From: Phytophthora quininea
Lineage: Eukaryota; Oomycota; Peronosporomycetes; Peronosporales; Peronosporaceae
Reading direction: 5' to 3'
DNA length: 64,000 bases
Assembly (NCBI GenBank): GCA_011947345.1
Contig: JAAVTG010000254.1
Span: 1 to 64,000, forward strand
In this document: piece after piece, positions 23,852 through 61,266 of the stretch
Layout: the number at the start of each line of letters is the position of its first letter
Position numbering within the stretch: the first letter of the stretch is position 1
Notes under the pieces: model-generated
Database searches by the model: none
What the model was told of the DNA's origin: nothing
What the model saw: the letters and a program-made list of their open reading frames with translations, nothing else
Made by a program: the position numbers and the translations under genes

Positions 23852-26086
23852 TTACACACGACCGGAAATGGGCGAGTACTCGCGGCGCATACGGTGGCGG
23901 CGCCAGCGCAGGACGGCAAAGACCGCCGCGGCCACCGCAGCCACAACCAGCGCAATGAAGCCCAGGATAGCGGCGAAGCTCCACTTGGCGACCGAGACCA
24001 ACAAGTGGCCCGCCTTGGCGGTCTTCTTGTGGACGGGGATCGCAGAGGGCGATACAGCTGGAAGTTGCGTCGGTGCTGAGCCTGGAACGGTCAGCAAGTG
24101 AGCGGCACCACCGAAATCGCACGTCGCGCCCTTCTCGCGGTTCAAGTGCCAGTACTGGTTGAAGGCCCAGTCGCACTGCTCCTCCAGCGTTAGGAAGCGC
24201 TTCTTAATGTCCGTGCAGTCGACCTCCTTGAAGTTACAGGCGAACGCGAGACCGCTCTTAAGCTCGTACTCGTGCACGCCGCGCTTGGCACGGCACACGA
24301 AGTCTCCGCGATCTTCCTTCATGCAAGCGGCCTCGACGCCCTCGCTCTCATGGTAGTCCGACACGTTCTTCGGGAACATGCCCTGACGGGCTAGATCTAA
24401 GAAGCTCCATTTGCTAGTGAACTCGGTCTTAAAGTTCCAGAAGTACCAGCCGTGGCCCATACTGAACGCGTTCAGCTTCTTCAGCATCAGCGACTTGGTC
24501 AGAGCCTTGTCGTCCGGCTGATCGAACGACGTGTCACTAGTGACGGGACACTTGCCGAACGAAGGGCCCGACATGCCTGTACCGTACGGTCCCTGGATTG
24601 GCTTCGTCTTGTCCAAAGGCGTGCCAGGGAAACCCTCACCAAGGTATGTACTGTTAACAGGGCAGTCGACCCAAGTGCATTGCACCTTGGGGAAACCCGG
24701 AAGGTTGTCGTTGAAGCCGTTGAGCCACATGGCACAGTTGTCTGTAGCGACTGACCACTCGCCAACGATCACAGGCATCATGGCGTTCTCCATGTCGGAG
24801 ATGACGTACTTTTGCTGGCAGGCGTTTGAGAAGAAGTCCGCCTCAGTTCCAGGCGGGTTCCAGGCCTGGTAGATGTGCGTATCAAGCGCAATATCGGGGC
24901 ATCCCTTGAGGAAGTCAGCCCAGAATTGCAGTCCGAAGCGGAACGAGTCGTGGATGACGAACTTCCACGCCGGGGCCAAAGCCTTGACGCGTTTGTACGA
25001 CTTCCAGTAGTACTCCTTCAGCACCTCGATAGGTGTGAGCTCCCACGGCTCATTCACGGGCTCCAACCCAATGATGGCCTTGTGGGCCTTGTAGCGGTTG
25101 ATGATGGCCTCCACCGCCACAATGGAGTGGTTCAAGTGGGCGTAGTTGATGCTCGTGTAATTGTGCGTCTCGACGTTGAACGTTCCGGCCCATCCAGCCT
25201 GACGGATCGGCCAGTGCTCGAAGGTGGTCGTCCCCACAGGCTGGGTACTAGCAATGGACGTCCATTTGACGGACGACGACATGCCGCTGTTGTCGAAGCC
25301 GTTCTGCGACCCAATGAGGCCGTGGATGTCTAGGAGGATGTCAATATCGTACTCCAAGGCAAGATCCGCCATGTCGTCCAGCGCCTCCACGGCGCCGTCC
25401 GTGCAGCCGGCGTAGGGCTCGTACGGGTTGAACATCCAGTCTCCGACCGGCACGCGGATCGAGTTGACGCCCACGGCGTGCAGCTCGGCGAGGTCCTTCT
25501 CCGTGAACCAGCTCTTGTAGTGCTGTCTCAGCTGTTTGTTGGCCTCCTCTTTGCCCAGCGCCGTGCAGAACGTGTAGATGTCCATGGCCGTCTTCTCCGG
25601 CGCCTTGTCGCCGAACTTCTGCTGCGTGTTGAGAAACTGGTAGAAGAGCGAGGGCGTGATCCACGGCTCCAGCACCAGCCAGCCGCCGATGTTGACGCCG
25701 CGCACTTGCTTGTTGAAGGGCGTCGCGTGCGAGTCCTGCGAGCACGTCATGTCCGTGTCGTTGGGCTTGAAGTACTTGAAGACGCCGCTGTCCTGGCCGA
25801 ACATGGACGCCTCGCCGTGTTTCCAGTACCACTCGTAGTCCGGGACGTCCGGGGACTCGCGCGGGCCCGGGTCGGGTGTGGGGGCCGGTGTAGGAGCCTC
25901 CGTCGTCTGCTCTGGGGCGGGCGGCGCTGGAGGAGCGTCCTGCGAGTCTTGCTCGCCCTCGGGCGGCGGGTCCATGGCCATCAGGTCCACCGACGTGTAG
26001 GGCGACGGCTGCCAGGCCGCCTGGGCGTGCGCCAGTGCCAGCAGCGCCACCGCAGCGACAGTCTTGAGCTTGGATCCGACCAGCAT
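23852..26086 (-). CDS. Membrane-anchored GH5 exo-1,3-beta-glucanase, copy 1
   Basis: Probably remodels or degrades 1,3-beta-glucan of the cell wall. From ATG 26086 there is a signal peptide (KTVAAVALLALAHAQAA), a proline/threonine-rich stalk (APPAPPAPEQTTEAPTPAPT), then the GH5 domain starting GVNIGGWLVLEPWITPSLFY. Catalytic residues are visible: acid/base in GLEPVNEPWELTP and nucleophile in MMPVIVGEWSVA. A C-terminal Cys-containing extension precedes a single membrane span (FAAILGFIALVVAAVAAAVF) and a short basic cytosolic tail ending YSPISGRV. The reading is intact, ~744 residues. It is the head of a tandem pair with 26937-28968, to which it is very similar throughout. Confidence 0.92.
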   Translation of the reverse strand: MLVGSKLKTVAAVALLALAHAQAAWQPSPYTSVDLMAMDPPPEGEQDSQDAPPAPPAPEQTTEAPTPAPTPDPGPRESPDVPDYEWYWKHGEASMFGQDSGVFKYFKPNDTDMTCSQDSHATPFNKQVRGVNIGGWLVLEPWITPSLFYQFLNTQQKFGDKAPEKTAMDIYTFCTALGKEEANKQLRQHYKSWFTEKDLAELHAVGVNSIRVPVGDWMFNPYEPYAGCTDGAVEALDDMADLALEYDIDILLDIHGLIGSQNGFDNSGMSSSVKWTSIASTQPVGTTTFEHWPIRQAGWAGTFNVETHNYTSINYAHLNHSIVAVEAIINRYKAHKAIIGLEPVNEPWELTPIEVLKEYYWKSYKRVKALAPAWKFVIHDSFRFGLQFWADFLKGCPDIALDTHIYQAWNPPGTEADFFSNACQQKYVISDMENAMMPVIVGEWSVATDNCAMWLNGFNDNLPGFPKVQCTWVDCPVNSTYLGEGFPGTPLDKTKPIQGPYGTGMSGPSFGKCPVTSDTSFDQPDDKALTKSLMLKKLNAFSMGHGWYFWNFKTEFTSKWSFLDLARQGMFPKNVSDYHESEGVEAACMKEDRGDFVCRAKRGVHEYELKSGLAFACNFKEVDCTDIKKRFLTLEEQCDWAFNQYWHLNREKGATCDFGGAAHLLTVPGSAPTQLPAVSPSAIPVHKKTAKAGHLLVSVAKWSFAAILGFIALVVAAVAAAVFAVLRWRRHRMRREYSPISGRV

Positions 26087-26100
26087 CTTGCTGTCTGCAC

Positions 26101-26117
26101 GGCGAATGCGGAAATGA
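26101..26117 (-). promoter_or_regulatory. Oomycete Inr/FPR of GH5 copy 1
   Basis: CTCATTTCCGCATTCGCC on the minus strand, ~15 bp from the ATG. Confidence 0.5.
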
Positions 26118-26936
26118 GACTCAAAAGGCCGCACGGCACAAAAGATCTTGAACGGGCTGGAAATTACAGGTATAGCCTAGTTGTCAAGGACGCAGAGAGG
26201 CTGATTTTGGAGACGAGATTTTCAGAAATAGCCCCAACCAGGTTGAAGCCTGTCGTCCGCTCGTCCAAAACTAAGATCGCAATACTGGGCGGGGCAGCCA
26301 GCTCCGCTGACGATATCTGCCAGCTCAGGGTGCCGCGGAAACGCCGCGCTCGCCTCTGCGGAAGGCCGGTTTGCCATCAAAGGAAAGCCTTGGAGCGAAC
26401 TGTTTGGCATCGCCATATTTGCTTGCACGAAGAGAGAGATCTTCTTCTGCCAGAGCCAGCGACTGCAGGTCCAGTCGTCTAACGAGGCCATGGCGATTTG
26501 CATGGCCGCCATCGCAAGCAGCCACCTCGCATGAGACAACCGAATGGATGGCCGGCGGTGACGGTCCTCGACGTCGACGTTTGTCCGCAGCAAGCGGACT
26601 TGCTTGTCTTCGGAGACCATGGGATGCCCATCACGACTGAAAGATACGCTTTCCGACCAAGCACCGGACCAGGATTTACACCAACTTAGCGCTCTAGCAG
26701 CAAGGTCGACAGCAAGATGACCAGGTTTTACTTGTTGTTGGCTAACCTGTTGAATCCCCGACGATGGCTGACGATGCTGATGCTGTTGACGTACCACTCG
26801 ATTGTCGCCGACGGCATGCAGCTCTTGACGCATGCGACGCGCTCGTCCGAGGCCAAAATATGTTATCGTATTATGTAGTAGTTCTTAGTACCGGTACACA
26901 CACACTGCGAGACGACAGACAACTCACTAGGACTGC
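26118..26936. other. Spacer between the GH5 genes, possible small plus-strand gene
   Basis: On the plus strand a reading SSETMGCPSRLKDTLSDQAP...LHQLSALAARSTAR (about 26560-26718) is followed in another frame by MTRFYLLLANLLNPRRWLTM...SSEAKICYRIM, stop at ~26878. The two would join with a one-base change. The composition looks protein-like, with a hydrophobic stretch, but no family is recognised and the claim is weak. Confidence 0.25.
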
Positions 26937-28968
26937 TTAGACACTCACGACGTGGCCGATCAGCGGCGAGTATTCCTCACGTCTCCTGTGGCGCGCGACG
27001 GCCATGAGCACGGCAAAGCCCACGAGTGCAAACGCCACGCCACCGAGCGTCCACTCGAAGACCTCCTTGCCGACGGCCGTGGCCAGGAACTCCTGGCGCT
27101 CCACGCTCGACGGACTGGCGATAGTCAACAGGTGGGCGGCGCCGCCAAAGTCGCACGTCGCGCCTTCCTCGCGGTGGGCGTGCCAGTATTTGTTGAACGC
27201 CCAGTCGCAGCGCTCCTCGAGCGTGTCGAAGCGCTCCTCGATGTCGGCGCAGTCCACCTCGTCACCGCAAGCAAAGTCCAGGCCGCTCTCCAGATCGGAG
27301 CGGTGCACGCCGCGCTTGGCCGCACAGACCAGTGCGCCTTTATCCTCGACCAGGCAGGCCGAGAAGACTTCCTCGTTACCGCGATAGTTGGAAACGTTCT
27401 TGGGGAACGCGCCCTTGCGGACGAGGTCCAGGAAGTTCCAGCGCGAGCCAAACTCCGTCTTGAAGTTCCAGAAGTACCAGCCGTGGCCGGCGGCGAACGC
27501 GTTGAGCTTCTTCATGTTGAGGTTCCTTGTGAACTTGAGCTCGTCGGAGTCGTCCTGTTGGCCGAAGGACGTATTGCTGGTGATCGGGCACTTGCCGAAC
27601 GACGGACCGGACTGACCGGTGCCGTACGGGCCCTGGATCGGCTTGGTCACGTCCAACGGGGTGCCCGGGAAGCCCTCGCCGAGATACGTGCTGTGCACGG
27701 GGCACTTGGTCATGCGGCATTGGATGTTGGGGAAGCCCGGCAGGTTGTCGTTGAAGCCGTTGAGCCACATCGCGCAGTTGTCGGTGCCGAGAGACCACTC
27801 GCCCACGATCACGGGCATCATGGCGTTCTCCATGTTGGCGATGTTGTACTTCTGCTGGCAGGCGCTGGAGAAATAGTCCGAGCGCGTACCGGGGGCGTTC
27901 CAGGCCTGGTAGATGTGCGTGTCGAGCGCAATGTCGGGACAGCCGCGCATGAACTGCGACCAGTACTGGACGCCGAAGCGGAACGAGTCGTGCAGCACGA
28001 ACTTCCAGTGCGGGGCGCGGGCCTTGACGCGCTTGTACGACTTCCAGTAGTAGTCCTTGAGCAGGTCGATGGGGTGAGCTCCCACGGCTCGTTCACAGGC
28101 TCGAGGCCGATGATGGCCGGGTGGTCGGCGTACCGGTCGACGATGGCGTGCACCGTCGCGAGCGAGTGGTTCAGGTGCTCGTAGTTGATGGTCTTGTACG
28201 TGTTGGTGGTGGTGTCGAACTCCCCGGCCCATCCGGCCTTGCGGATCGTCCAGTGCTCGAACGTGGTGGTGCCAACGGGACGTGTGCTGGCAATCGACGT
28301 CCACTTGACGTCGGACGACATGCCACTGTTGTCGAAGCCGTTCTGCGAGCCGATCAGCCCGTGGATGTCGAGTAGCAGCTCGATCTTGTACTTGTACGCC
28401 AAATTGGCGACGCGGTCGAGCTCCTCCACGGCGCCGTCGGTGCAACCGATGTACGGCTCGTACGGGTTGAACATCCAGTCGCCGACGGGCACCCGCAGCG
28501 AGTTGACGCCGGCGTCGGCCATCTCCTTGATGTCGTTCTCGGTGACCCACGTGGCCCAGTGGATCTTGAGCTGGCGGTTGGCCTCCTCTTTGCCTAGAGC
28601 GGTGCAGAAGGTGTACATGTCCATTGCTGTCTTCTCTGGGGCCTTGTCGCCGTAGCGTTCTTGGGTGCTCAGGAACTGGTAGAAGAGCGTGGGGTGATCC
28701 ACGGTTCCAACACCAGCCAACCGCCGAGGTTGGCGCCGCGCACCTGCCGGTTGAACGGCGTGGCGTGGGTGTCGCTGGAGCAGGTTTGGTTCTCGTCATT
28801 GACGCGGAAGTTGGCGAAGAAGTCGAGGTGAGCCGAGGCGCGGGTGAAGACGTGGTCGTTCTCCCAGTACCACCTGGCGTCCTTGACCTCTGCTTGGTCG
28901 GGGGCGTAGGCGGTGGTGGTGGTCAACGCCAACGAAAGCGCCGTGGCCAACTGCAGCAAGAGCTTCAT
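26937..28968 (-). CDS. Membrane-anchored GH5 exo-1,3-beta-glucanase, copy 2
   Basis: Paralogue of the gene at 23852-26086, same strand, ~0.85 kb away. From ATG 28968 the signal peptide is MKLLLQLATALSLALTTTTA; this copy lacks the proline-rich stalk. The same GH5 motifs follow (GANLGGWLVLEPWIT, EPVNEPWELTP, MMPVIVGEWSLG), then a C-terminal membrane span (LGGVAFALVGFAVLMAV) and tail. Two frame breaks, at ~28695 and ~28070, both fall in GGGG runs where copy 1 has an extra base (GAGGGCGTG against GTGGGGTG at the first). They are therefore best read as missing bases, not decay. Restored length ~678 residues. Confidence 0.88.
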
Positions 28969-33426: not shown

Positions 33427-34393
33427 CACAATCAAGACACTTTTCAATAGAGAATTTAACCGGTTCCATCCAGATTTCCGGTTTGTCCCTTTTCGCACAT
33501 CCAGCTACAACCGGTTTTTGACGTGATAATCGGTTTAAACCGACTTAAAATCGAATCCATTCGACTCGAATTCAATTATGTTTTTTTACTGTCATTATGC
33601 ATGCCATTAGTCATGCGTTTTAGAAGTTCATTGCTAAATACAGGGTATGAAAAGCTCATAATTGGTTGAAAATATTTTTGATTTGCACCAATCAGGTTGA
33701 TTTTGCAAGATTTTATATAATCAAGCAATGCAAATATATTTGTTGTCGAGGAGATCACCCAGTATCGCGAGTCGCGATGAAAACTCTGCACCGCAGGACT
33801 TCCAGCAACGTCGCGCATTGTGTGCGGCGTACCTCATGTTGGACGAGCTGGCTCCGTCTTCCAAGAACATCATCGTCATCGACAAGTCCTCCCTCGGTGG
33901 GGAACTAGATACTGACGCTGGGGGTCCTCTCACGGACGTGGTGCCAGGCAAACCCGAAGGCTGGCTTTCACCTTGACGGCAGAAGACAACAAACACGGAC
34001 CCTAAGTCGCGATTTGCTTCTCGACGACGGTGCTGGGAGTCCAGGAAGACTAGAAGCTTGCTGCTCTCATGGGGATGAAGCCCGCGTTGGTAGATACTGG
34101 TGCTTGGGAATCGCCTCGGTCACTTCGAGGACCGCGTGCATGCGGCTTTGACTGTCCACCTGCACTTGCAATGTAAGTCACCGAGATTTGCCAGCTCGAA
34201 AGGAAGCCATCTCGAGTTCTTGGCAACTCCACCACTGCGATGCTGTGACGCCGCTGTTCGCCACACGATGGCAAGCTCAGTGGTCCGTTTCATTTACAAA
34301 ATCGCCGGCGTCGACACAAGTGGTAGCGATCGTTGGTTGCCGTTCGAGTGATCGGAGACGTCGAGTGCCATTCGAGTGACGGCAACTTCAACG

Positions 34394-35165
34394 ATGCCGC
34401 GAGTGACCACTATCCAAGCCCCTCGTGATCATGCCAAAGAGCCCACCCCTCTGCTGCCGAGGTCGGATTCCCTCGTCCCCAAGGACGGCAATCCTCTCTA
34501 CTTGTACCTGCTCACGCTGTGCTCCACGATCGGCGGCTTCCTCTTCGGCTACGACACAGGCGTCATCTCCGGAGCTCTGGTGCTGCTCAAGAGCCCTGAC
34601 GTGTTCGATCTCAGCGACCTCCAGAGCGAGAGCGTCGTGTCTGCTGCTGTCGGCGGCGCAATCGTCGGTGCAGCGCTCAGTAGCTGCGGCAACGACATGT
34701 TCGGCCGCCGTCGCGTGATTCTCTTGTCCTCGGGGATATTCGTGTTTGGCTCGGCCCTCATGGCCCTGGCCGGCTCCTTCACGAAGCTGCTCGTCGGTCG
34801 ACTTGTCGTCGGAATCGCCATCGGTTTCGCCTCCATTACTGTCCCGCCCTACATTGCTAAGGCCTCGCCGCCAAGTATCCGCGGCCAACTCCTGTCTCTG
34901 AACAACGCATGCGTCACCGGCGGCCAGTTCTTTGCCTGTGTGCTTGATGCGTTCCTCGCCAACTTGGACGCCGGGTGGCGATCACATGCTCGGCTTCGCT
35001 GCTGTCCCCGCTCTCGTGTAATTCCTCGGCTTTCTTGCGCTGCCGGAGACCCCGCGCTACCTCATGAGCAAAGGACGGAAGGAGGATACTTGGAATTCAC
35101 TCGCAAATACTCGCGGGACGATGGACGTGTCTGCTGAGTTCAGCAACGTCGAAGCGGAGGTAAAG
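34394..35165 (+). pseudogene. Captured MFS sugar transporter N-terminal part
   Basis: Reads MPRVTTIQAPRDHAKEPTPL, then the sugar-transporter hallmarks GGFLFGYDTGVISGALVLLK, GGAIVGAALSSCGNDMFGRR and LLVGRLVVGIAIGFASITVP, covering about the first five membrane helices. From ~34980 the frame breaks (GWRS/HMLGFAAVPALV, then TAA, then FLGFLALPETPRYLMSKGRK). The transporter-like text fades at about FSNVEAEVKR (35165), directly abutting polymerase-epsilon sequence. A full transporter has ~500 residues and 12 helices, so this is a 5' fragment. It is similar to the inositol/hexose symporter branch. It lies wholly inside the hAT-type element. Confidence 0.8.
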
Positions 35166-36540
35166 CGCACCGATGACCACGACACCAATCTGCGTACTCC
35201 TAACTCACTAAGCTTCGACCCTGTACTACATGCGATGGTGAAGCGTTTGATGGAGAAGATCTTCTTGCAATTACTTGCAGAGTTTCGACGACTTGACTCC
35301 CACATTGTGTATGCGGACTTCAGCAAGATCATCGTCTGCACCAAGAAGAAAACCGTGCGAGATGCGCAGACGTATCTACAGTTTATCTTGCAGACTGTCC
35401 TTTCGAACGAGCTCTTCCAAGTCTTGAACCTTACACCGAAAAAGTGCTTTTCGAACCTCTTCTTCATGGACGCAGAGAAATATGGCTGTATTCTTAAAAA
35501 ACATGACAGCCGAAGAAGACCGAGGCGACAGCGACCACAAAGGCGGCGATAAGCCGCTGGAAATTGTCTCGCACTGGAATATCGCCAACTACTTACCACG
35601 TGGAGTGGACGAATACTTCTTGATCCTTGTAGGACAGTTCATTCGCGGACGCGCAGAGTTTCAACGTCGACAGTTAACCAAAGGTACCGATGCCAAGCCT
35701 AATGTTGCAGAAGACGCAGACGACCAACCAGTGGAGGAGGACGAAAAGCAGCATAGTCCACTCGCTTTGTACTCGCAGAAGCTCGTCTCGTCCTACTTCT
35801 CGGAGAAACTGCTGCGTTTGGTGCCGGAAATCTTGACATACAACATGGACCGAGACAGTTTCCCTGTCTTTGCTGGCTCGCATCTGCCCATGGAATCTCC
35901 CGCGCTCGAACTAGTAAAGTTTGGCTGTTCTGTGTTTAATCTTGAGCCAAGCGTAGAGACCCAAGTAGGGAAAATGCGGCGCACTCTGCTGAAGCTGTTC
36001 CGTATGAGTGAGTTTGCCGATGGCTCGCAATTCAAGAACCCGTCGCTGTCGTTCACAGTGCAGGACGTCATCTGTCTCTGCTGTAACTTGTGCCAGTCAG
36101 TGGATCTATGTCGAGACCCACAGCTTATCAAAGGCAGTGCAAATGGTAATGAGGACGAAGAAGAACAGGAAAAGACGGAAGAGACTGAAGCAGCCTCTTC
36201 ATGGCACTGTCCACGGTGCTTCGCTCTTTATGATAAAACTGCATTCGAGATGCGGCTCGTGGAGATGGTTCAGGCGCAGTCTGTGGCCTACCAACTTCAA
36301 GACTTGTACTGCTAAAAGTGCCATTTACCTGCCGAGCACAAGATGCGCGAGTACTGCCCATGCTCCGGAACGTACGCGTTGATGCCAGGTGTGCAGGAGT
36401 CACTGCAAGAGACTCTGCGCCTGCTCAACCGAATCGCGCAACAGCACAACTTTGAATGTCTCCTTGAGACTGTCCAGCGCCTGGAGCGTCAAGCAGGCCA
36501 ACATTTGCTAGGGTACGTAAGGGTCAATAGAGGTTTCTTT
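35166..36540 (+). pseudogene. Captured C-terminal end of DNA polymerase epsilon
   Basis: Two overlapping frames give the C-terminal non-catalytic domain of the large polymerase epsilon subunit: LQLLAEFRRLDSHIVYADFS, then (after a shift near 35480) EIVSHWNIANYLPRGVDEYF, and finally the zinc-binding modules CLCCNLCQSVDLC...WHCPRCFALYD and LQDLYC-stop-KCHLPAEHKMREYCPC. The stop (TAA at 36313-36315) interrupts the CysB motif between a Cys and the Lys-Cys that should follow. The remaining tail runs to ~36510. The polymerase and exonuclease domains are absent. In a working enzyme this region binds the B subunit and a Fe-S/zinc centre. Here it is a broken passenger in the hAT-type element. Confidence 0.85.
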
Positions 36541-37406
36541 GACCTGTAGTCCGATCTGATTCTCTTGGGCTTTGGTAAGAGTTCTGCCAGCCAGGCAATA
36601 TGAAGGATGCGATGAAAATCCTGGCGCTTACGATTGCCAATGGTTTTGATGCCGAATTGCGCCCGACTTGCAGCGTTGGACGTTGACTTAATGGTCGCGC
36701 TTGTAGCTGCGACGCGTTTTGGGCACGTTGCATTTCGCGCATAGCGGCTTGTTGGGTGTGTGAGTTGCTCTGGCTTCACTCCGCGTTGAGCTGCTGCCGC
36801 AGCAGGCGCAGTAGCCTGGTCATGCCGTTCGTGGTAGCTGCCGTGGTCGCTGTCGAGGTAGCAGCAACTTGGCCTTGCTGTTGTTGCTGCTGCTGCTGCT
36901 GAAGCTGGTGCTGCTTCTGCATGAGATATTGCTGTTGTTTGCGCTGCAGCTGCTGCTGCTTGCTCTTGTGGAGGTGCTGTAGTCGCTTGCGCGCAAGCGC
37001 ATGTTGCTGTTGCAACGTCTGCAGCTGCTGTCGGCGTAGATCGGAGGCGATGTTTTGCTGCTGTTGCTGCTGCGTCAGTTGTTGCTGCTGGTTCAAGTGT
37101 TGCTGGCGCAATTGCTGCTGCGTCAGTTGTTGCTGCTGGTTCAAGTGTTGCTGGCGCAATTGCTGCGTGTCTTGGTTTTGCGTGTGCAGCAACTGGCGCT
37201 GCTGAGCTTGGAGTTGCACTTGGATGCGCTGCAGCCACTGCTGCGCTTGCTGCTGTGGAGGTGTCGGCATGTTCACTGATGGCGTTGTACCGGTCGAAGT
37301 AGCTGCAGTGTTTGCGGCGTTCAACCCAGGTCGACCGTGAGGTCTGGATCAGCTCCGGATGCGTGCGCACGACCGCTCTCAGTCGCTCCATCTCGTGCGC
37401 CTTCAA
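36524..37406 (-). pseudogene. Glutamine-rich gene fragment inside the hAT element
   Basis: The minus strand opens with LKAHEMERLRAVVRTHPELI (no ATG in frame). It shifts near 37325 into NAANTAATSTGTTPSVNMPT and then a long Gln-rich stretch with two 16-residue tandem units (QLRQQHLNQQQQLTQQ) ending RLLRLLRQQLNAE. The start and the abrupt ends suggest another captured exon set, possibly from a coactivator or chromatin protein, but the family is not identified. All reading is within the element boundaries. Confidence 0.5.
37070..37165. repeat. 48-bp tandem repeat (2 copies) in the Gln-rich region
   Basis: The unit GTCAGTTGTTGCTGCTGGTT plus 28 further bases occurs twice with identical sequence, matching two 16-residue protein repeats. 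Confidence 0.8.
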
Positions 37407-37633
37407 GGCCCACGATTGCTAGCAGCTAACGTCGTAGCTCCGCTGCGCTGATCACCTTTGAACAGGTCCCTGGTGCTATGGATATCGATAATAGCAAACA
37501 CAAACCGGTTATAAACCGGTTTTACTCGGATCGAAACCGTTTGATTCGATTTGACGAGTTAAACCGAATTAAAATCGGTTTTGAACCGGTTGGAATCGGT
37601 TGAATCGATCTGTTTGCATTCTCTACTTTTCAA

Positions 37634-52105: not shown

Positions 52106-54533
52106 ATGGTGTTTTACGACAGCAGTGACGAAGAACACTGCGATGTCAAATATGAAGACTTTGAAGAAGATTGGCCGTTCGGAGTCCACGATCGTACGAA
52201 GATGCGATCGCTCCAACGGGGAAAGCGTGCCGGTTGATCAGCAAAATACTGGCTCAAGCAGGAGACAACGCCGGCGAGTTCACTTTCGGAGGACAAGCAG
52301 AACCGCTGCCAATTTCGCCAGGACTTGAGGTCAAAAGTGTTGGACCGATCCCTCTACCGTTGATCGGCGACGTAGCAGAGAAACTCATTGCTGCGAGTAC
52401 GAAATCTCCCTACGGACAACAGTACGAGACGTTGATAGACGACAACATCCGCAAGAGCTGGGAGCTTCCACCGTCCCAAATTCAGTTAACGAATCCGCTG
52501 TGGCGGACAGGACTGGGGAGCTGGCCAAAACTATCGCAGTACGACTGGGCTATTGCAACGTTCCGCTTCAGATCAAGCTGTACAAGTTGCTGGTGTATGC
52601 TGAAGGCGGCCACTTCGCCAAGCACCGAGACACCGAAAAAGAAAACGGCATGATCGCCACGTTGGTCGTTCAACCGCCGAGTCTGCACGAAGGAGGAGAC
52701 TTGCTCGTGAACCGAGACACTGCTACCCAATACCGCCACGATTTCGGCAAGAGTGATGGAACGGCTGCTTACCTTCCCCATTATGCAGTGCACTATGCCG
52801 ATGCCGAGCATACGCTGGAGACGGTGACGAAAGGCTATCGACTGGTGCTGGTGTACTCGATTTGCGTGCCACCCTCGGTTGGATGTGTGAGGAACGATGA
52901 AACGAAGCGTCTGAGTGGCGAACTGGCGACGGCGATCAACAATATGGAGGAAGGAGACGACGCTTTCGCGTTGTTGCTGTCTCATCAGTACACACCGAAA
53001 AGTATTGAGATTTGGGTGTTCAAGCTCTCAAGGGAGTTGATCGAGCGAGGTATTTTGCTTTGAAAGAGGCGAACGACAGCGTCGACTCAGCGAAGAAGTT
53101 GCATCTCTTCCTGGCAGAGTTGTCGTCCACACTGGAGTTTATTGCAAGCGGTGATGAATGGGAACCACTCACCTCGACGGGTAGTATGTTTGGGCCGTCA
53201 CATCCAGGCAATAAGAACGATTCGATCACTTGGTATTCAGAGACTGGGAAGAGCTTTGGCTGTGTGGAAGACGCAAGTGTGGAATTGAATCTCCTCAACC
53301 CGCAGCAGGAAACACTATCTCGAATGTGGAGACCCTACGGCAGCACGACGTTGGAAGGATCTCTCGGCAACGACGGGATCACAAGAGACACCAAGTACTC
53401 CCGATACGCCATCGTCGGCCTGTCGGAGCTGAGAGGGGCGGAGAGAGTATTGGAGATTCTGAATGAACATGCAGCTCTGGACTTCTTCCACCGCCAAAAA
53501 GCAGCTACTACCAGCGCGCTGTCGGCCTTTAGCGAGACTGCATCCAAGCTCATCGACGACGATGCCACTACGAAGATTCTGGAATATCAAAAACCTGTCG
53601 ATGCTGAGGTTCTTGGGTCATTCATGAGTGCGGTCAATGCTGAGTTGTCGAGGACGGATCGACACTATCGCAAGACCCCGTCTCAATTGCTTTTGTTGTG
53701 ACTTGGCCGAACTCGTGGTTGATGCTGGCTCACCGCAGTTGGTGAAGCAGCTCTTTAGTGATATCGGAATACGTATGACCCTGCGAGACTGCACTGACAA
53801 CGCTCTAACCACGTGGGTTATGCTATTGATCTCGATCGCGAGCTCACTTGACTGGGATGCCATCAAGCAAGAGTTTCCCAAAGCACTTCTTGCTATCCCG
53901 AACTCTACCGGGATCTCCGTCCTAGTCGTCGAGTGTCTAGGGAGCGGTACAGCTCACGACGACATTCTGAAATCAGTTCTAGGCAGGATTACCATGCGGG
54001 ACTACAGTAAAGAGCAGTTGTGGAAGGGGGCTCTACGTAGCGATGATAAGACTGTGCTGGATGATGTGGTGAGTAAATTCAAACAAGCCGATCCAAGCGA
54101 GTTGCAGCCAGTGGTCGAGGGATTCCTACCACTTTTGGCCCATATCGACAAGGAGGATGACAAGTTCGTCAAGCTGAAAGTCATCGTGGACATGCGGATC
54201 AAGTGGCTCAACCACCAAACTCGTACATTGGACAAGCCTTTCTCGTGGGAGATGCCTGATGCGAAGTTTTCTGATAGTCGTGCAGTGGAGACGTTCCTTA
54301 GAGGACCCCAGACGTCTACGGTTGCCACAGGATTGCGGAAGTTTGAGAACCTGCAAGACGCCAGGAATTACGCTGCTAAAAGGACCCACAACCAACAAAC
54401 GAATGCGTCTTTCGAGATGGAAGCTGGCGGCGGTGATGAAAATGCGTTCGTGACGATTACGAAGACCCGCCAATGGTTTTCTGCACGTCAGGAAATGCTG
54501 AAGACCGAGCTTCAAAATATAGTAGCACTGTGA
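52106..54533 (+). CDS. 2-oxoglutarate/Fe(II) oxygenase-like protein, copy 1 (frame breaks)
   Basis: Begins MVFYDSSDEEHCDVKYEDFE at 52106. The middle carries the oxygenase fold: KLLVYAEGGHFAKHRDTEKE with the H-x-D iron ligands, GDLLVNRDTATQYRHDFGKS, YADAEHTLETVTKGYRLVLV with the distal His and the Arg that binds 2-oxoglutarate. A long C-terminal part ends ELQNIVAL. Frame changes occur near 52205, 52490, 53010 and 53680. Those at 52490 and 53680 are also in copy 2; that at 53010 (one G lost in TATTGGAG) is unique. Restored length ~800 residues. The fold resembles prolyl-4-hydroxylase-type enzymes; the substrate is unknown. Forms an inverted pair with 58828-61266. Confidence 0.65.
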
Positions 54534-58827: not shown

Positions 58828-61266
58828 CTACAACGCTACTAGTATTTGCAGCTCGGCCTTGTGCTTCTTCAGCATTTCCTGACGTGCAGAAAAACATTGG
58901 CGGGTCTTCGTAATCGTCACGAAAGCATTTTCATCATCACCACCAGCTTCCATCTCGAAAGACACATTCGTTTGTTGGTTGCGGGTCCTTTTAGCAGCGT
59001 AGTTCTTGGCATCTTGTAGGTTCTCAAACTCCCGTAATCCTGTGGCAACCGTAGACGTCTGGGGTCCTCTAAGGAACGTCTCCACTGCACGACTATCAGA
59101 AAACTTCGCATCAGGCATCTCCCACGAGAAAGGCTTGTCCAATGTACGAGTTTGGTGGTTGAGCCACTTGATCCGCATGTCCACGATGACTTTCAGCTTG
59201 ACGAACTTGTCATCCTCCTTGTCGATATGGGCCAAAAGTGGTAGGAATCCCTCGACCACTGGCTGCAACTCGCTTGGATCGGCTTGTTTGAATTTACTCA
59301 CCACATCATCCAGCACAGTCTTATCATCGCTACGTAGAGCCCCCTTCCACAACTGCTCTTTACTGTAGTCCCGCATGGTAATCCTGCCTAGAACTGATTT
59401 CAGAATGTCGTCGTGAGCTGTACCGCTCCCTAGACACTCGACGACTAGGACGGAGATCCCGGTAGAGTTCGGGATAGCAAGAAGTGCTTTGGGAAACTCT
59501 TGCTTGATGGCATCCCAGTCAAGTGAGCTCGCGATCGAGATCAATAGCATAACCCACGTGGTTAGAGCGTTGTCAGTGCAGTCTCGCAGGGTCATACGTA
59601 TTCCGATATCACTAAAGAGCTGCTTCACCAACTGCGGTGAGCCAGCATCAACCACGAGTTCGGCCAAGTCACAACAAAAGCAATTGAGACGGGGTCTTGC
59701 GATAGTGTCGATCCGTCCTCGACAACTCAGCATTGACCGCACTCATGAATGACCCAAGAACCTCAGCATCGACAGGTTTTTGATATTCCAGAATCTTCGT
59801 AGTGGCATCGTCGTCGATGAGCTTGGATGCAGTCTCGCTAAAGGCCGACAGCGCGCTGGTAGTAGCTGCTTTTTGGCGGTGGAAGAAGTCCAGAGCTGCA
59901 TGTTCATTCAGAATCTCCAATACTCTCTCCGCCCCTCTCAGCTCCGACAGGCCGACGATGGCGTATCGGGAGTACTTGGTGTCTCTTGTGATCCCGTCGT
60001 TGCCGAGAGATCCTTCCAACGTCGTGCTGCCGTAGGGTCTCCACATTCGAGATAGTGTTTCCTGCTGCGGGTTGAGGAGATTCAATTCCACACTTGCGTC
60101 TTCCACACAGCCAAAGCTCTTCCCAGTCTCTGAATACCAAGTGATCGAATCGTTCTTATTGCCTGGATGTGACGGCCCAAACATACTACCCGTCGAGGTG
60201 AGTGGTTCCCATTCATCACCGCTTGCAATAAACTCCAGTGTGGACGACAACTCTGCCAGGAAGAGATGCAACTTCTTCGCTGAGTCGACGCTGTCGTTCG
60301 CCTCTTTCAAAGCAAAATACCTCGCTCGATCAACTCCCTTGAGAGCTTGAACACCCAAATCTCCAATACTTTTCGGTGTGTACTGATGAGACAGCAACAA
60401 CGCGAAAGCGTCGTCTCCTTCCTCCATATTGTTGATCGCCGTCGCCAGTTCGCCACTCAGACGCCTCGTTTCATCGTTCCTCACACATCCAACCGAGGGT
60501 GGCACGCAAATCGAGCACACCAGCACCAGTCGATAGCCTTTCGTCACCGTCTCCAGCGTATGCTCGGCATCGGCATAGTGCACTGCATAATGGGGAAGGT
60601 AAGCAGCCGTTCCATCACTCTTGCCGAAATCGTGGCGGTATTGGGTAGCAGTGTCTCGGTTCACGAGCAAGTCTCCTCCTTCGTGCAGACTCGGCGGTTG
60701 AACGACCAACGTGGCGATCATGCCGTTTTCTTTTTCGGTGTCTCGGTGCTTGGCGAAGTGGCCGCCTTCAGCATACACCAGCAACTTGTACAGCTTGATC
60801 TGAAGCGGAACGTTGCAATAGCCCAGTCGTACTGCGATAGTTTTGGCCAGCTCCCCAGTCCTGTCCGCCACAGCGGATTCGTTAACTGAATTTGGGACGG
60901 TGGAAGCTCCCAGCTCTTGCGGATGTTGTCGTCCATCAACGTCTCGCACTGTCGTCCGTAGGGAGATTTCGTACTCGCAGCAATGAGTTTCTCTGCTACG
61001 TCGCCGATCAACGGTAGAGGGATCGGTCCAACACCTTTGACCTCAAGTCCTGGCGAAATTGGCAGCGGTTCTGCTTGTCCTCCGAAAGTGAACTCGCCGG
61101 CGTTGTCTCCTGCTTGAGCCAGTATTTTGCTGATCAACCGGCACGCTTTCCCCGTTGGAGCGATTACATCTTTTGCTGACCCGTGTGTTCCGAAGGGCCA
61201 GTCGTTCTTAAAGCCTTCGTAAAAGTCAGCATCGCACTCGTCGTCACTGTTTCCGAGGAAGCTCAT
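58828..61266 (-). CDS. 2-oxoglutarate/Fe(II) oxygenase-like protein, copy 2 (frame breaks)
   Basis: Begins MSFLGNSDDECDADFYEGFK at 61266 and reads DVIAPTGKACRLISKILAQA without the N-terminal break of copy 1. A frame change at ~60895 leads to ESAVADRTGELAKTIAVRLG and the same oxygenase motifs (HFAKHRDTEKE, TKGYRLVLV). A second at ~59690 leads to CDLAELVVDAGSPQLV and the stop at 58828. Between about 59010 and 61160 it is almost base-for-base the inverse of copy 1 (few substitutions, for example Tyr/Cys after RLVLV). The first ~35 codons and last ~20 codons differ clearly. The two shared breaks could be inherited lesions, tiny introns or assembly errors copied into both. Confidence 0.65.

What the first reader, a model, noticed from the sequence alone, without database searches (positions are those of the whole stretch)
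33448..37625. A Pack-type hAT transposon loaded with three unrelated host gene pieces
Seen: perfect 8-bp TIRs (TAGAGAAT...ATTCTCTA), perfect 8-bp target duplication CTTTTCAA, dense ACCGGTT subterminal repeats, no transposase reading, and an interior of degenerate MFS transporter, polymerase epsilon C-terminus and Gln-rich sequence in series. Known: hAT elements make 8-bp duplications, and Pack-TYPE elements capture genomic fragments in plants. Inference: this is an oomycete Pack-hAT that captured and joined host exons. I am not aware of such elements being established in oomycetes.
Basis: partly seen in the sequence, partly recalled or inferred. Interest (0 to 1): 0.9.

Follow-up and report, generated by a model that had tools for sequence, protein, structure and literature searches.

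The report
Gene-carrying jumping element in an oomycete
A cut-and-paste DNA transposon in a Phytophthora-like oomycete carries pieces of several unrelated host genes (three clear donors and a likely fourth), has copies at eleven places, and in one copy also holds an effector-type gene; this way of shuffling genes is known in plants, animals and fungi, and my searches found no report of it for this kind of element in oomycetes.

Summary
Window 33448-37625 is a 4,178-bp element with perfect 8-bp TIRs and a perfect 8-bp target duplication. A homologous contig of the same genome holds the unoccupied site with a single CTTTTCAA. The genome shows 11 left and 9 right ends; 6 of 9 two-ended copies have perfect, all different, 8-bp duplications. 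Copies that reach them share the MFS/POLE junction and premature stops, which points to one loaded ancestor. One copy (C510) lost most of this cargo and holds a different 1.5-kb insert with an RXLR-family open frame. So: a multi-donor Pack-type element, most likely hAT. No partner transposase with these ends was found, so hAT membership rests on ends and duplications. Pack-hATs and hAT transduplication are in print for plants, animals and fungi; I found none for oomycetes. New member of a known kind.

The parts
33440..33447 (.). left 8-bp target site duplication CTTTTCAA
   Evidence: single copy at the empty site C616:255517-255524
33448..33455 (+). left terminal inverted repeat TAGAGAAT; the first 18 bp are identical in 8 of 11 left ends, one mismatch in the other 3
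33448..33600 (+). left subterminal region with AACCGGTT-type repeats
   Evidence: left end found in 11 copies
33828..33993 (+). likely captured piece of an M20-type peptidase gene (middle part), decayed
   Evidence: 72% to C185:442261-442393, genome-wide E 2.4e-11; extended; donor exon is Pfam Peptidase_M20; the piece itself rings no Pfam family
33994..35188 (+). captured MFS sugar/inositol transporter: 397 bp upstream of the start codon plus about 264 codons; premature TAA at codon 209
   Evidence: 94% to C463:11890-13080 and C830:536851-538039; start codon; Pfam; stop
35022..35549 (+). open frame of 176 aa running in frame across the MFS/POLE junction (Sugar_tr then DUF1744)
35191..36531 (+). 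captured 3' part of the DNA polymerase epsilon catalytic subunit gene, through its stop codon into 11 bp of 3' flank
   Evidence: 93% to C331:25509-26846 and C704:152395-153721; Pfam DUF1744, zf_DPOE_2, zf-DPOE
36552..36697 (+). likely captured piece of the 3' end of an M20-type peptidase gene; matched to 36640, the rest by inference
   Evidence: 85% over 62 bp to C185:440993-441054, genome-wide E 4.0e-11, and 88% over 33 bp beside it
36698..37329 (-). captured piece of a Gln-rich gene, antisense to the other pieces; lacks about 99 bp of the donor (no GT-AG borders)
   Evidence: 87-91% to C616:52794-53484 and C268:3629-4313
37330..37479 (.). interior of unknown origin; found only in copies. 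In copy C510, 37404-37477 is replaced by a different 1,516-bp insert
37480..37625 (+). right subterminal region with AACCGGTT-type repeats
   Evidence: right end found in 9 copies
37618..37625 (-). right terminal inverted repeat ATTCTCTA
37626..37633 (.). right 8-bp target site duplication CTTTTCAA

Best explanation
A non-autonomous cut-and-paste DNA transposon, most likely of the hAT superfamily, that behaves as a Pack-type element. A transposase supplied in trans would recognise the 8-bp ends and the AACCGGTT subterminal repeats and move whatever lies between them (inferred). During repair of breaks inside the element, template switching copied genomic stretches of unrelated genes into it (inferred). 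An M20-type peptidase stretch was probably first, then an MFS and a POLE stretch came to lie inside it, and a Gln-rich stretch was added (order inferred from nesting and divergence). The element stands at 11 sites (shown); one internally deleted form moved on as such (shown by a shared breakpoint at three unrelated sites); and one copy holds different cargo including an RXLR-family open frame (insert shown; whether taken before or after that copy's transposition is not resolved). The window's cargo is decayed passenger DNA.
For: 11 left and 9 right ends in the genome; 6 of 9 two-ended copies have perfect, mutually different 8-bp duplications; flanks of different copies share no match at E 1e-5 over up to 1.5 kb; empty site with one CTTTTCAA; donors on different contig sets with abrupt junctions; the same MFS/POLE junction in the 6 copies that reach it; the MFS stop at codon 209 in 6 of 6 and the POLE stop at codon 272 in 5 of 5 copies examined; C340, C355 and C3 share one internal deletion; the two M20 pieces match one locus, same strand, same order, about 1.2 kb apart. 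Substitutions among copies do not depart from neutral. At least 150 hAT dimerisation domains in the genome; two of 12 inspected hAT loci show 8-bp duplications with CAGGG/TAGGG ends.
Against: No partner transposase with these ends. 3 of 9 two-ended copies lack a perfect duplication: C408 differs at 2 of 8 bases, C430 and C3 do not match. The M20 match is weak (72% and 85%), the first piece rings no Pfam family, and a protein search with it found only the element's own copies at E up to 1. The origin of 33601-33827 and 37330-37479 is unknown. Unrooted trees keep the donor pairs as one clade each (support 1.000), which fits a single capture but cannot prove it; identity to the MFS donors (94-96% for the six longer copies) is close to that between copies.
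Confidence: 0.87

Rival explanations
1. The same Pack-type element, but moved by a transposase of another superfamily that also makes 8-bp duplications (P-like, Zisupton/KDZ or an undescribed one; their duplication lengths recalled).
For: The TIR is only 8 bp and no partner was found.
Against: TAGAG fits the YARNG start of hAT ends (rule recalled) and two hAT loci of this genome have ends of that style with 8-bp duplications; hAT domains abound. KDZ and P-like RNase H profiles found nothing, but the tool's controls rang nowhere either, so that absence shows little.
Confidence: 0.12
2. Not exclusive of the best explanation: the cargo was assembled by in-place repair (transposition-independent gap filling) in a resident copy and only afterwards amplified, so that capture has nothing to do with transposition itself.
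For: Described for most single-copy Pack-TIRs of animals (PMC8277862, passages); the C510 insert sits in a single copy and replaces 74 bp of the element.
Against: Multi-copy Pack-TIRs are ascribed there to template switching followed by transposition; the 11 copies found all carry some cargo and no unloaded precursor was found (counts are lower bounds).
Confidence: 0.4
3. The cargo is a functional chimeric gene kept by selection, not passenger DNA.
For: A long open frame in the native frames of both donors crosses the MFS/POLE junction in 5 of 6 copies (176 aa in four, 436 aa in C185); C301 has 123 aa with breaks nearby. The window's frame rings both Pfam families. Observed nonsynonymous to synonymous ratios (1.89 and 1.69) lie somewhat under the neutral 2.47 and 2.66.
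Against: The MFS stop is shared by 6 of 6 copies and the POLE stop by 5 of 5; substitution classes among copies do not differ from neutral (MFS 36:19, p 0.37; POLE 27:16, p 0.17), and for POLE they differ from the fixed differences to the donor, which are mostly synonymous (12:20, p 0.037; MFS 9:6, p 0.77).
Confidence: 0.07
4. The ends are chance and the stretch is a patchwork of ordinary duplications.
For: None found beyond the short TIR.
Against: Copies, duplications and empty site.
Confidence: 0.01

Closest known systems
Pack-hAT elements of maize and rice (Pack-TYPE; PMC8903248, passages seen)
   Same: Non-autonomous, hAT-type ends, 8-bp duplications, internal pieces of host genes, large clusters in maize.
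   Different: Plants; 'oomycete' does not occur in its main text. The passages I saw do not speak of several donors in one element; I did not read the whole paper.
Pack-TIRs of animals, hAT class (208 of 370; PMC8277862, passages seen)
   Same: hAT ends around host DNA; a frog case on three chromosomes with three different duplications.
   Different: Only four multi-copy cases named there; the frog cargo is one 291-bp UTR piece, against about 3.2 kb from three donors plus about 0.3 kb M20-like here.
hAT transduplication of histone H3 in fungi (PMC6710886 and PMC3538342, passages seen)
   Same: hAT-type element that amplifies host coding sequence; 8-bp duplications in PMC6710886.
   Different: Those elements have forms that encode hAT transposase domains; the cargo in PMC6710886 is an intronless, transcript-like copy of one gene. 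Here no transposase was found and the pieces run past gene borders.
Pack-MULEs, and MULEs of Phytophthora (PMC6446971, passages seen)
   Same: Mutator elements carrying host gene fragments are described for plants; in a table a Phytophthora MULE group is noted as having SET in 14 members, so extra domains in oomycete transposons are in print.
   Different: A different superfamily; where the table passages give values for Phytophthora groups they are TIRs of tens of bp and a 9-bp duplication. Here 8-bp TIRs and 8-bp duplications, no transposase, several donors. That Pack-MULEs can join several genes is recalled.

Membership tests
Pack-type (gene-capturing non-autonomous DNA transposon) | Copies at independent sites with shared ends and their own target duplications | tested here: met
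   11 left ends, 9 right ends; 6 of 9 two-ended copies with perfect, different duplications, C408 2 of 8 off, C430 and C3 not matching; flanks unrelated
Pack-type (gene-capturing non-autonomous DNA transposon) | Interior derived from host genes that still exist elsewhere as ordinary genes | tested here: met
   MFS, POLE and Gln-rich donors at C463/C830, C331/C704, C616/C268; M20-type family at C185, weaker
Pack-type (gene-capturing non-autonomous DNA transposon) | No transposase of its own | tested here: met
   Pfam scan of 13 open frames of the window copy finds only host-gene domains or nothing; shorter frames were not scanned
hAT superfamily | 8-bp target site duplication | tested here: met
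hAT superfamily | Short TIR beginning YARNG (rule recalled) | tested here: met
   TAGAG at both ends; 8 bp perfect
hAT superfamily | Mobilised by a hAT transposase (autonomous partner with the same ends) | tested here: inconclusive
   hAT domains abound (150 scored of 429 candidates). Of 12 hAT loci fetched none shows a TAGAGAAT/ATTCTCTA pair; single occurrences lie inside the dimerisation domain stretch of L073 and outside the recognised element in L077. The pattern TAGAGAAT-N(0-30)-ACCGGTT gives 19 places: 16 family ends, two alleles of one coiled-coil-like gene and one (C221) not looked at
P-like or Zisupton/KDZ superfamilies (rivals) | Matching transposase present in the genome | tested here: inconclusive
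   No hit for PF18758 or PF21787, but the tool's controls rang nowhere either

The most novel reading that the evidence does not exclude
In this oomycete lineage a Pack-hAT family gathers genes in successive, nested rounds and can carry RXLR effector-family genes between transposon ends, so that hAT transposition is one of the engines that disperse and recombine effector genes in the repeat-rich part of the genome.
Probability: 0.2. Interest if true: 0.8.

Novelty: new member of a known kind. Interest (0 to 1): 0.55.

Why it matters
Transposon capture of host genes is documented for plants, animals and fungi. A multi-donor family with an empty site would extend it to oomycetes, whose effector repertoires are known to turn over quickly beside repeats (recalled). 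The family gives markers for the order of capture (donor divergence, nesting, shared deletions), and the C510 copy offers a testable case of an effector-family gene between transposon ends.

Tried and rejected
Partner search. An 18-bp left end with up to 3 mismatches gave 35 places: the 11 left ends and 24 others, no more than the reversed-pattern control (22 and 30). The best outsider, C467, lies in LINE-like sequence. The gapped end pattern (control 0 and 0) added two alleles of a coiled-coil-like gene and C221, not inspected. Twelve hAT loci fetched, of 150 listed, have other ends or none recognised.

Spliced-transcript capture. The 99 bp or so absent from the Gln-rich piece have no GT-AG borders, so I read it as a deletion. 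No intron inside a captured stretch was identified, so transcript capture is not formally excluded; the MFS upstream part and the POLE 3' flank argue for DNA but could lie in untranslated regions.

C510 as an unloaded precursor. Rejected: it keeps 18 bp of the MFS piece, 16 of 18 identical to the donor, so it looks like a deletion form of a loaded element; 18 bp is a short stretch.

Independent captures in different copies. Rejected for the window's cargo because junction and stops are shared. C301 and C185 lack the 12-bp loss next to the MFS/POLE junction that the other four have, so that loss is not ancestral.

Selection on cargo: no departure from neutral among copies, with few sites.

Results dropped: (minus-strand loci were wrongly reversed; redone); the POLE half (wrong anchor; redone); the gap lists printed. 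The figure of about 1e-27 treats bases as independent and is not used.
Full report
What is there. The window lies on contig C213 of an 87.2-Mb, 993-contig genome. The closest named proteins to the MFS donor are from Phytophthora (85% identity to a P. ramorum protein, then 82% to P. nicotianae and P. megakarya; best 120 of 4,249 listed), and the genome holds an RXLR-family open frame; an oomycete of the Peronosporales is my inference and the species is open. The element at 33448-37625 has perfect 8-bp TIRs, a perfect 8-bp duplication CTTTTCAA, and AACCGGTT subterminal repeats that occur nowhere else in the window.

It moved. A second contig, C616, matches the left flank (600 bp, 94%) and the right flank (1,000 bp, 89.5%) and joins them at a single CTTTTCAA (C616:255517-255524), the 8 bp being shared by both matches. 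I read this as the unoccupied site, presumably on the other haplotype.

It is a family. The left 203 bp finds 11 places, the right 150 bp finds 9. Of 9 copies with both ends, 6 have perfect duplications, all different: C213 CTTTTCAA, C185 GTCGGAAG, C527 TTGCTAAC, C340 CATGCCGC, C355 TCGACAGC, C510 GCTTCTGG. C408 differs at 2 of 8 bases; C430 and C3 do not match. For C301 and C867 only a left end was found. Flanks of different copies share no match at E 1e-5; the two flanks of C3 hold a 1.09-kb inverted repeat, 99.9% identical.

Donors. DNA searches with the interior give three clear donor loci, each present twice as likely haplotypes (99.7%, 97.3% and 96.4% identical to one another): an MFS transporter (C463, C830; 94% to the element), the DNA polymerase epsilon 3' region (C331, C704; 93%), and a Gln-rich gene (C616, C268; 87-91%). 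Pfam names the first two; the Gln-rich frame rings no family. Homology starts and stops abruptly. The MFS piece starts 397 bp before the start codon and ends inside the coding region; the POLE piece starts inside the DUF1744 coding region and runs 11 bp past the stop codon; the Gln-rich piece is internal and lies antisense. This points to genomic DNA taken without regard to gene borders.

A likely fourth donor. Two remaining stretches, 33873-33992 and 36579-36640, match one locus on C185 at 72% and 85% with genome-wide E-values of 2.4e-11 and 4.0e-11; finer comparison extends them to 33828-34000 and 36552-36640. That locus is a cluster of M20-type peptidase genes (Pfam: one exon over the cut-off, one under it). 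The two pieces lie in the same strand and order as in that gene, one on each side of the MFS-POLE block. The simple reading is that an M20 stretch was taken first and the MFS-POLE block came to lie inside it; its greater divergence fits. But the true M20 donor may be a paralogue that I did not find, the left piece rings no Pfam family, and a protein search with it found only the element's own copies at E up to 1.

History. The MFS/POLE junction is shared by the 6 copies that reach it. The MFS frame has the same TAA at codon 209 in 6 of 6, the POLE frame the same stop at codon 272 in 5 of 5 copies examined. So this cargo was acquired, and had begun to decay, before those copies spread. Among the six longer copies identity over MFS is 95.0-98.4%; over POLE 97.8-98.4% among five, C301 being about 84% there. 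Unrooted trees keep each donor pair as one clade, which fits one capture without proving it. C340, C355 and C3 share one internal deletion (window 34653/34655 to 37024) at three unrelated sites, so the deleted form transposed too. C185 is split by a 12.6-kb insertion with about 560-bp direct terminal repeats 99.8% identical, C408 carries a 2.85-kb insertion, C867 runs into what looks like Gypsy-type sequence (the last by eye). Substitutions among copies show no significant constraint: MFS 36 nonsynonymous to 19 synonymous, POLE 27 to 16, against neutral expectations of 2.47 and 2.66 to 1 (p 0.37 and 0.17); fixed differences to the donor are 9:6 for MFS and 12:20 for POLE. A long open frame in the native frames of both donors crosses the MFS/POLE junction in 5 of 6 copies, less so in C301; in the window it is 176 aa with both Pfam signatures. 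Given the upstream stop and the lack of constraint I read it as a by-product.

Different cargo in one copy. C510 has both ends and a perfect duplication but keeps only the left end to 34012 and 37332-37403, then 1,516 bp not found in the other fetched copies, then the right end from 37478. The new stretch matches a clustered sequence family on C666, C41 and other contigs (mostly 73-95%, where 40 of 58 candidates were scored) and is interrupted by a 352-bp repeat with 14 near-full-length relatives at 90-96% (TG...CA ends and a 5-bp repeat GTTGC by eye). It holds a 70-aa open frame that scores over the Pfam cut-off for RXLR effectors (35.1 bits, cut-off 26.9). Whether the insert was taken before or after this copy's transposition cannot be told from one copy.

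Which superfamily. The 8-bp duplications and TAGAG ends suit hAT. The genome is rich in hAT domains, and two of 12 inspected loci (C614, with DUF659 and hAT dimerisation domains; C153) have 8-bp duplications with CAGGGATGCTA/CAGTGATGGTA and TAGGGCTGTCA ends. No transposase gene with TAGAGAAT ends was found. Membership is therefore inferred, while 'works like a Pack-hAT' is well supported.

Literature. Seen as listings and passages only; no paper was read whole. Pack-hATs are established in maize and rice (PMC8903248), hAT is the commonest class of Pack-TIRs in animals (PMC8277862), and hAT transduplication is described in fungi (PMC6710886, PMC3538342). For oomycetes: 'Pack-TYPE' with 'oomycete' returned no paper. 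The listings (20 of 72; 20 of 22; 20 of 318; 20 of 70; 20 of 46; 15 of 15; 15 of 25; 12 of 60; 15 of 22) showed none by title or abstract start. Two oomycete papers opened for passages speak of hAT only as a repeat class or not at all (PMC3522703, PMC3681718). Against full novelty, a table in PMC6446971 notes a SET domain in 14 members of a Phytophthora MULE group. The library lacks preprints and most subscription journals, so absence is not shown.

Verdict.

Noticed in passing
window 52151-54504 and 58866-61221: Large inverted repeat, arms about 2.36 kb and 98.4% identical, around a 4.4-kb spacer with a cyclophilin/RRM-type and a protein-kinase-type open frame.
   Followed up: partly
L016:670-879 minus strand (C510:31591-31800): RXLR-family open frame between the ends of a Pack-type copy; the surrounding stretch has relatives clustered on C666 and C41.
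   Followed up: partly
L070 (C614) and L077 (C153): Two other hAT loci with 8-bp duplications GTCTGAAC and GTATACAC; the C614 one has a 606-aa open frame with hAT domains.
   Followed up: partly
C3, contig positions 1423630-1428370: Copy flanked by a 1.09-kb inverted repeat 99.9% identical; no matching target duplication.
   Followed up: no
C301, contig positions 75203-75889 and 80018-80706: Direct repeat of about 690 bp, 98.4% identical, on both sides of a copy for which no right end was found.
   Followed up: no
window 37330-37479 and 33601-33827: Two interior stretches of the element were matched only by its own copies; they may be older cargo or the element's own sequence.
   Followed up: partly
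window 23852-28799, minus strand: Two neighbouring open frames with X8 domains, one also cellulase family 5.
   Followed up: no
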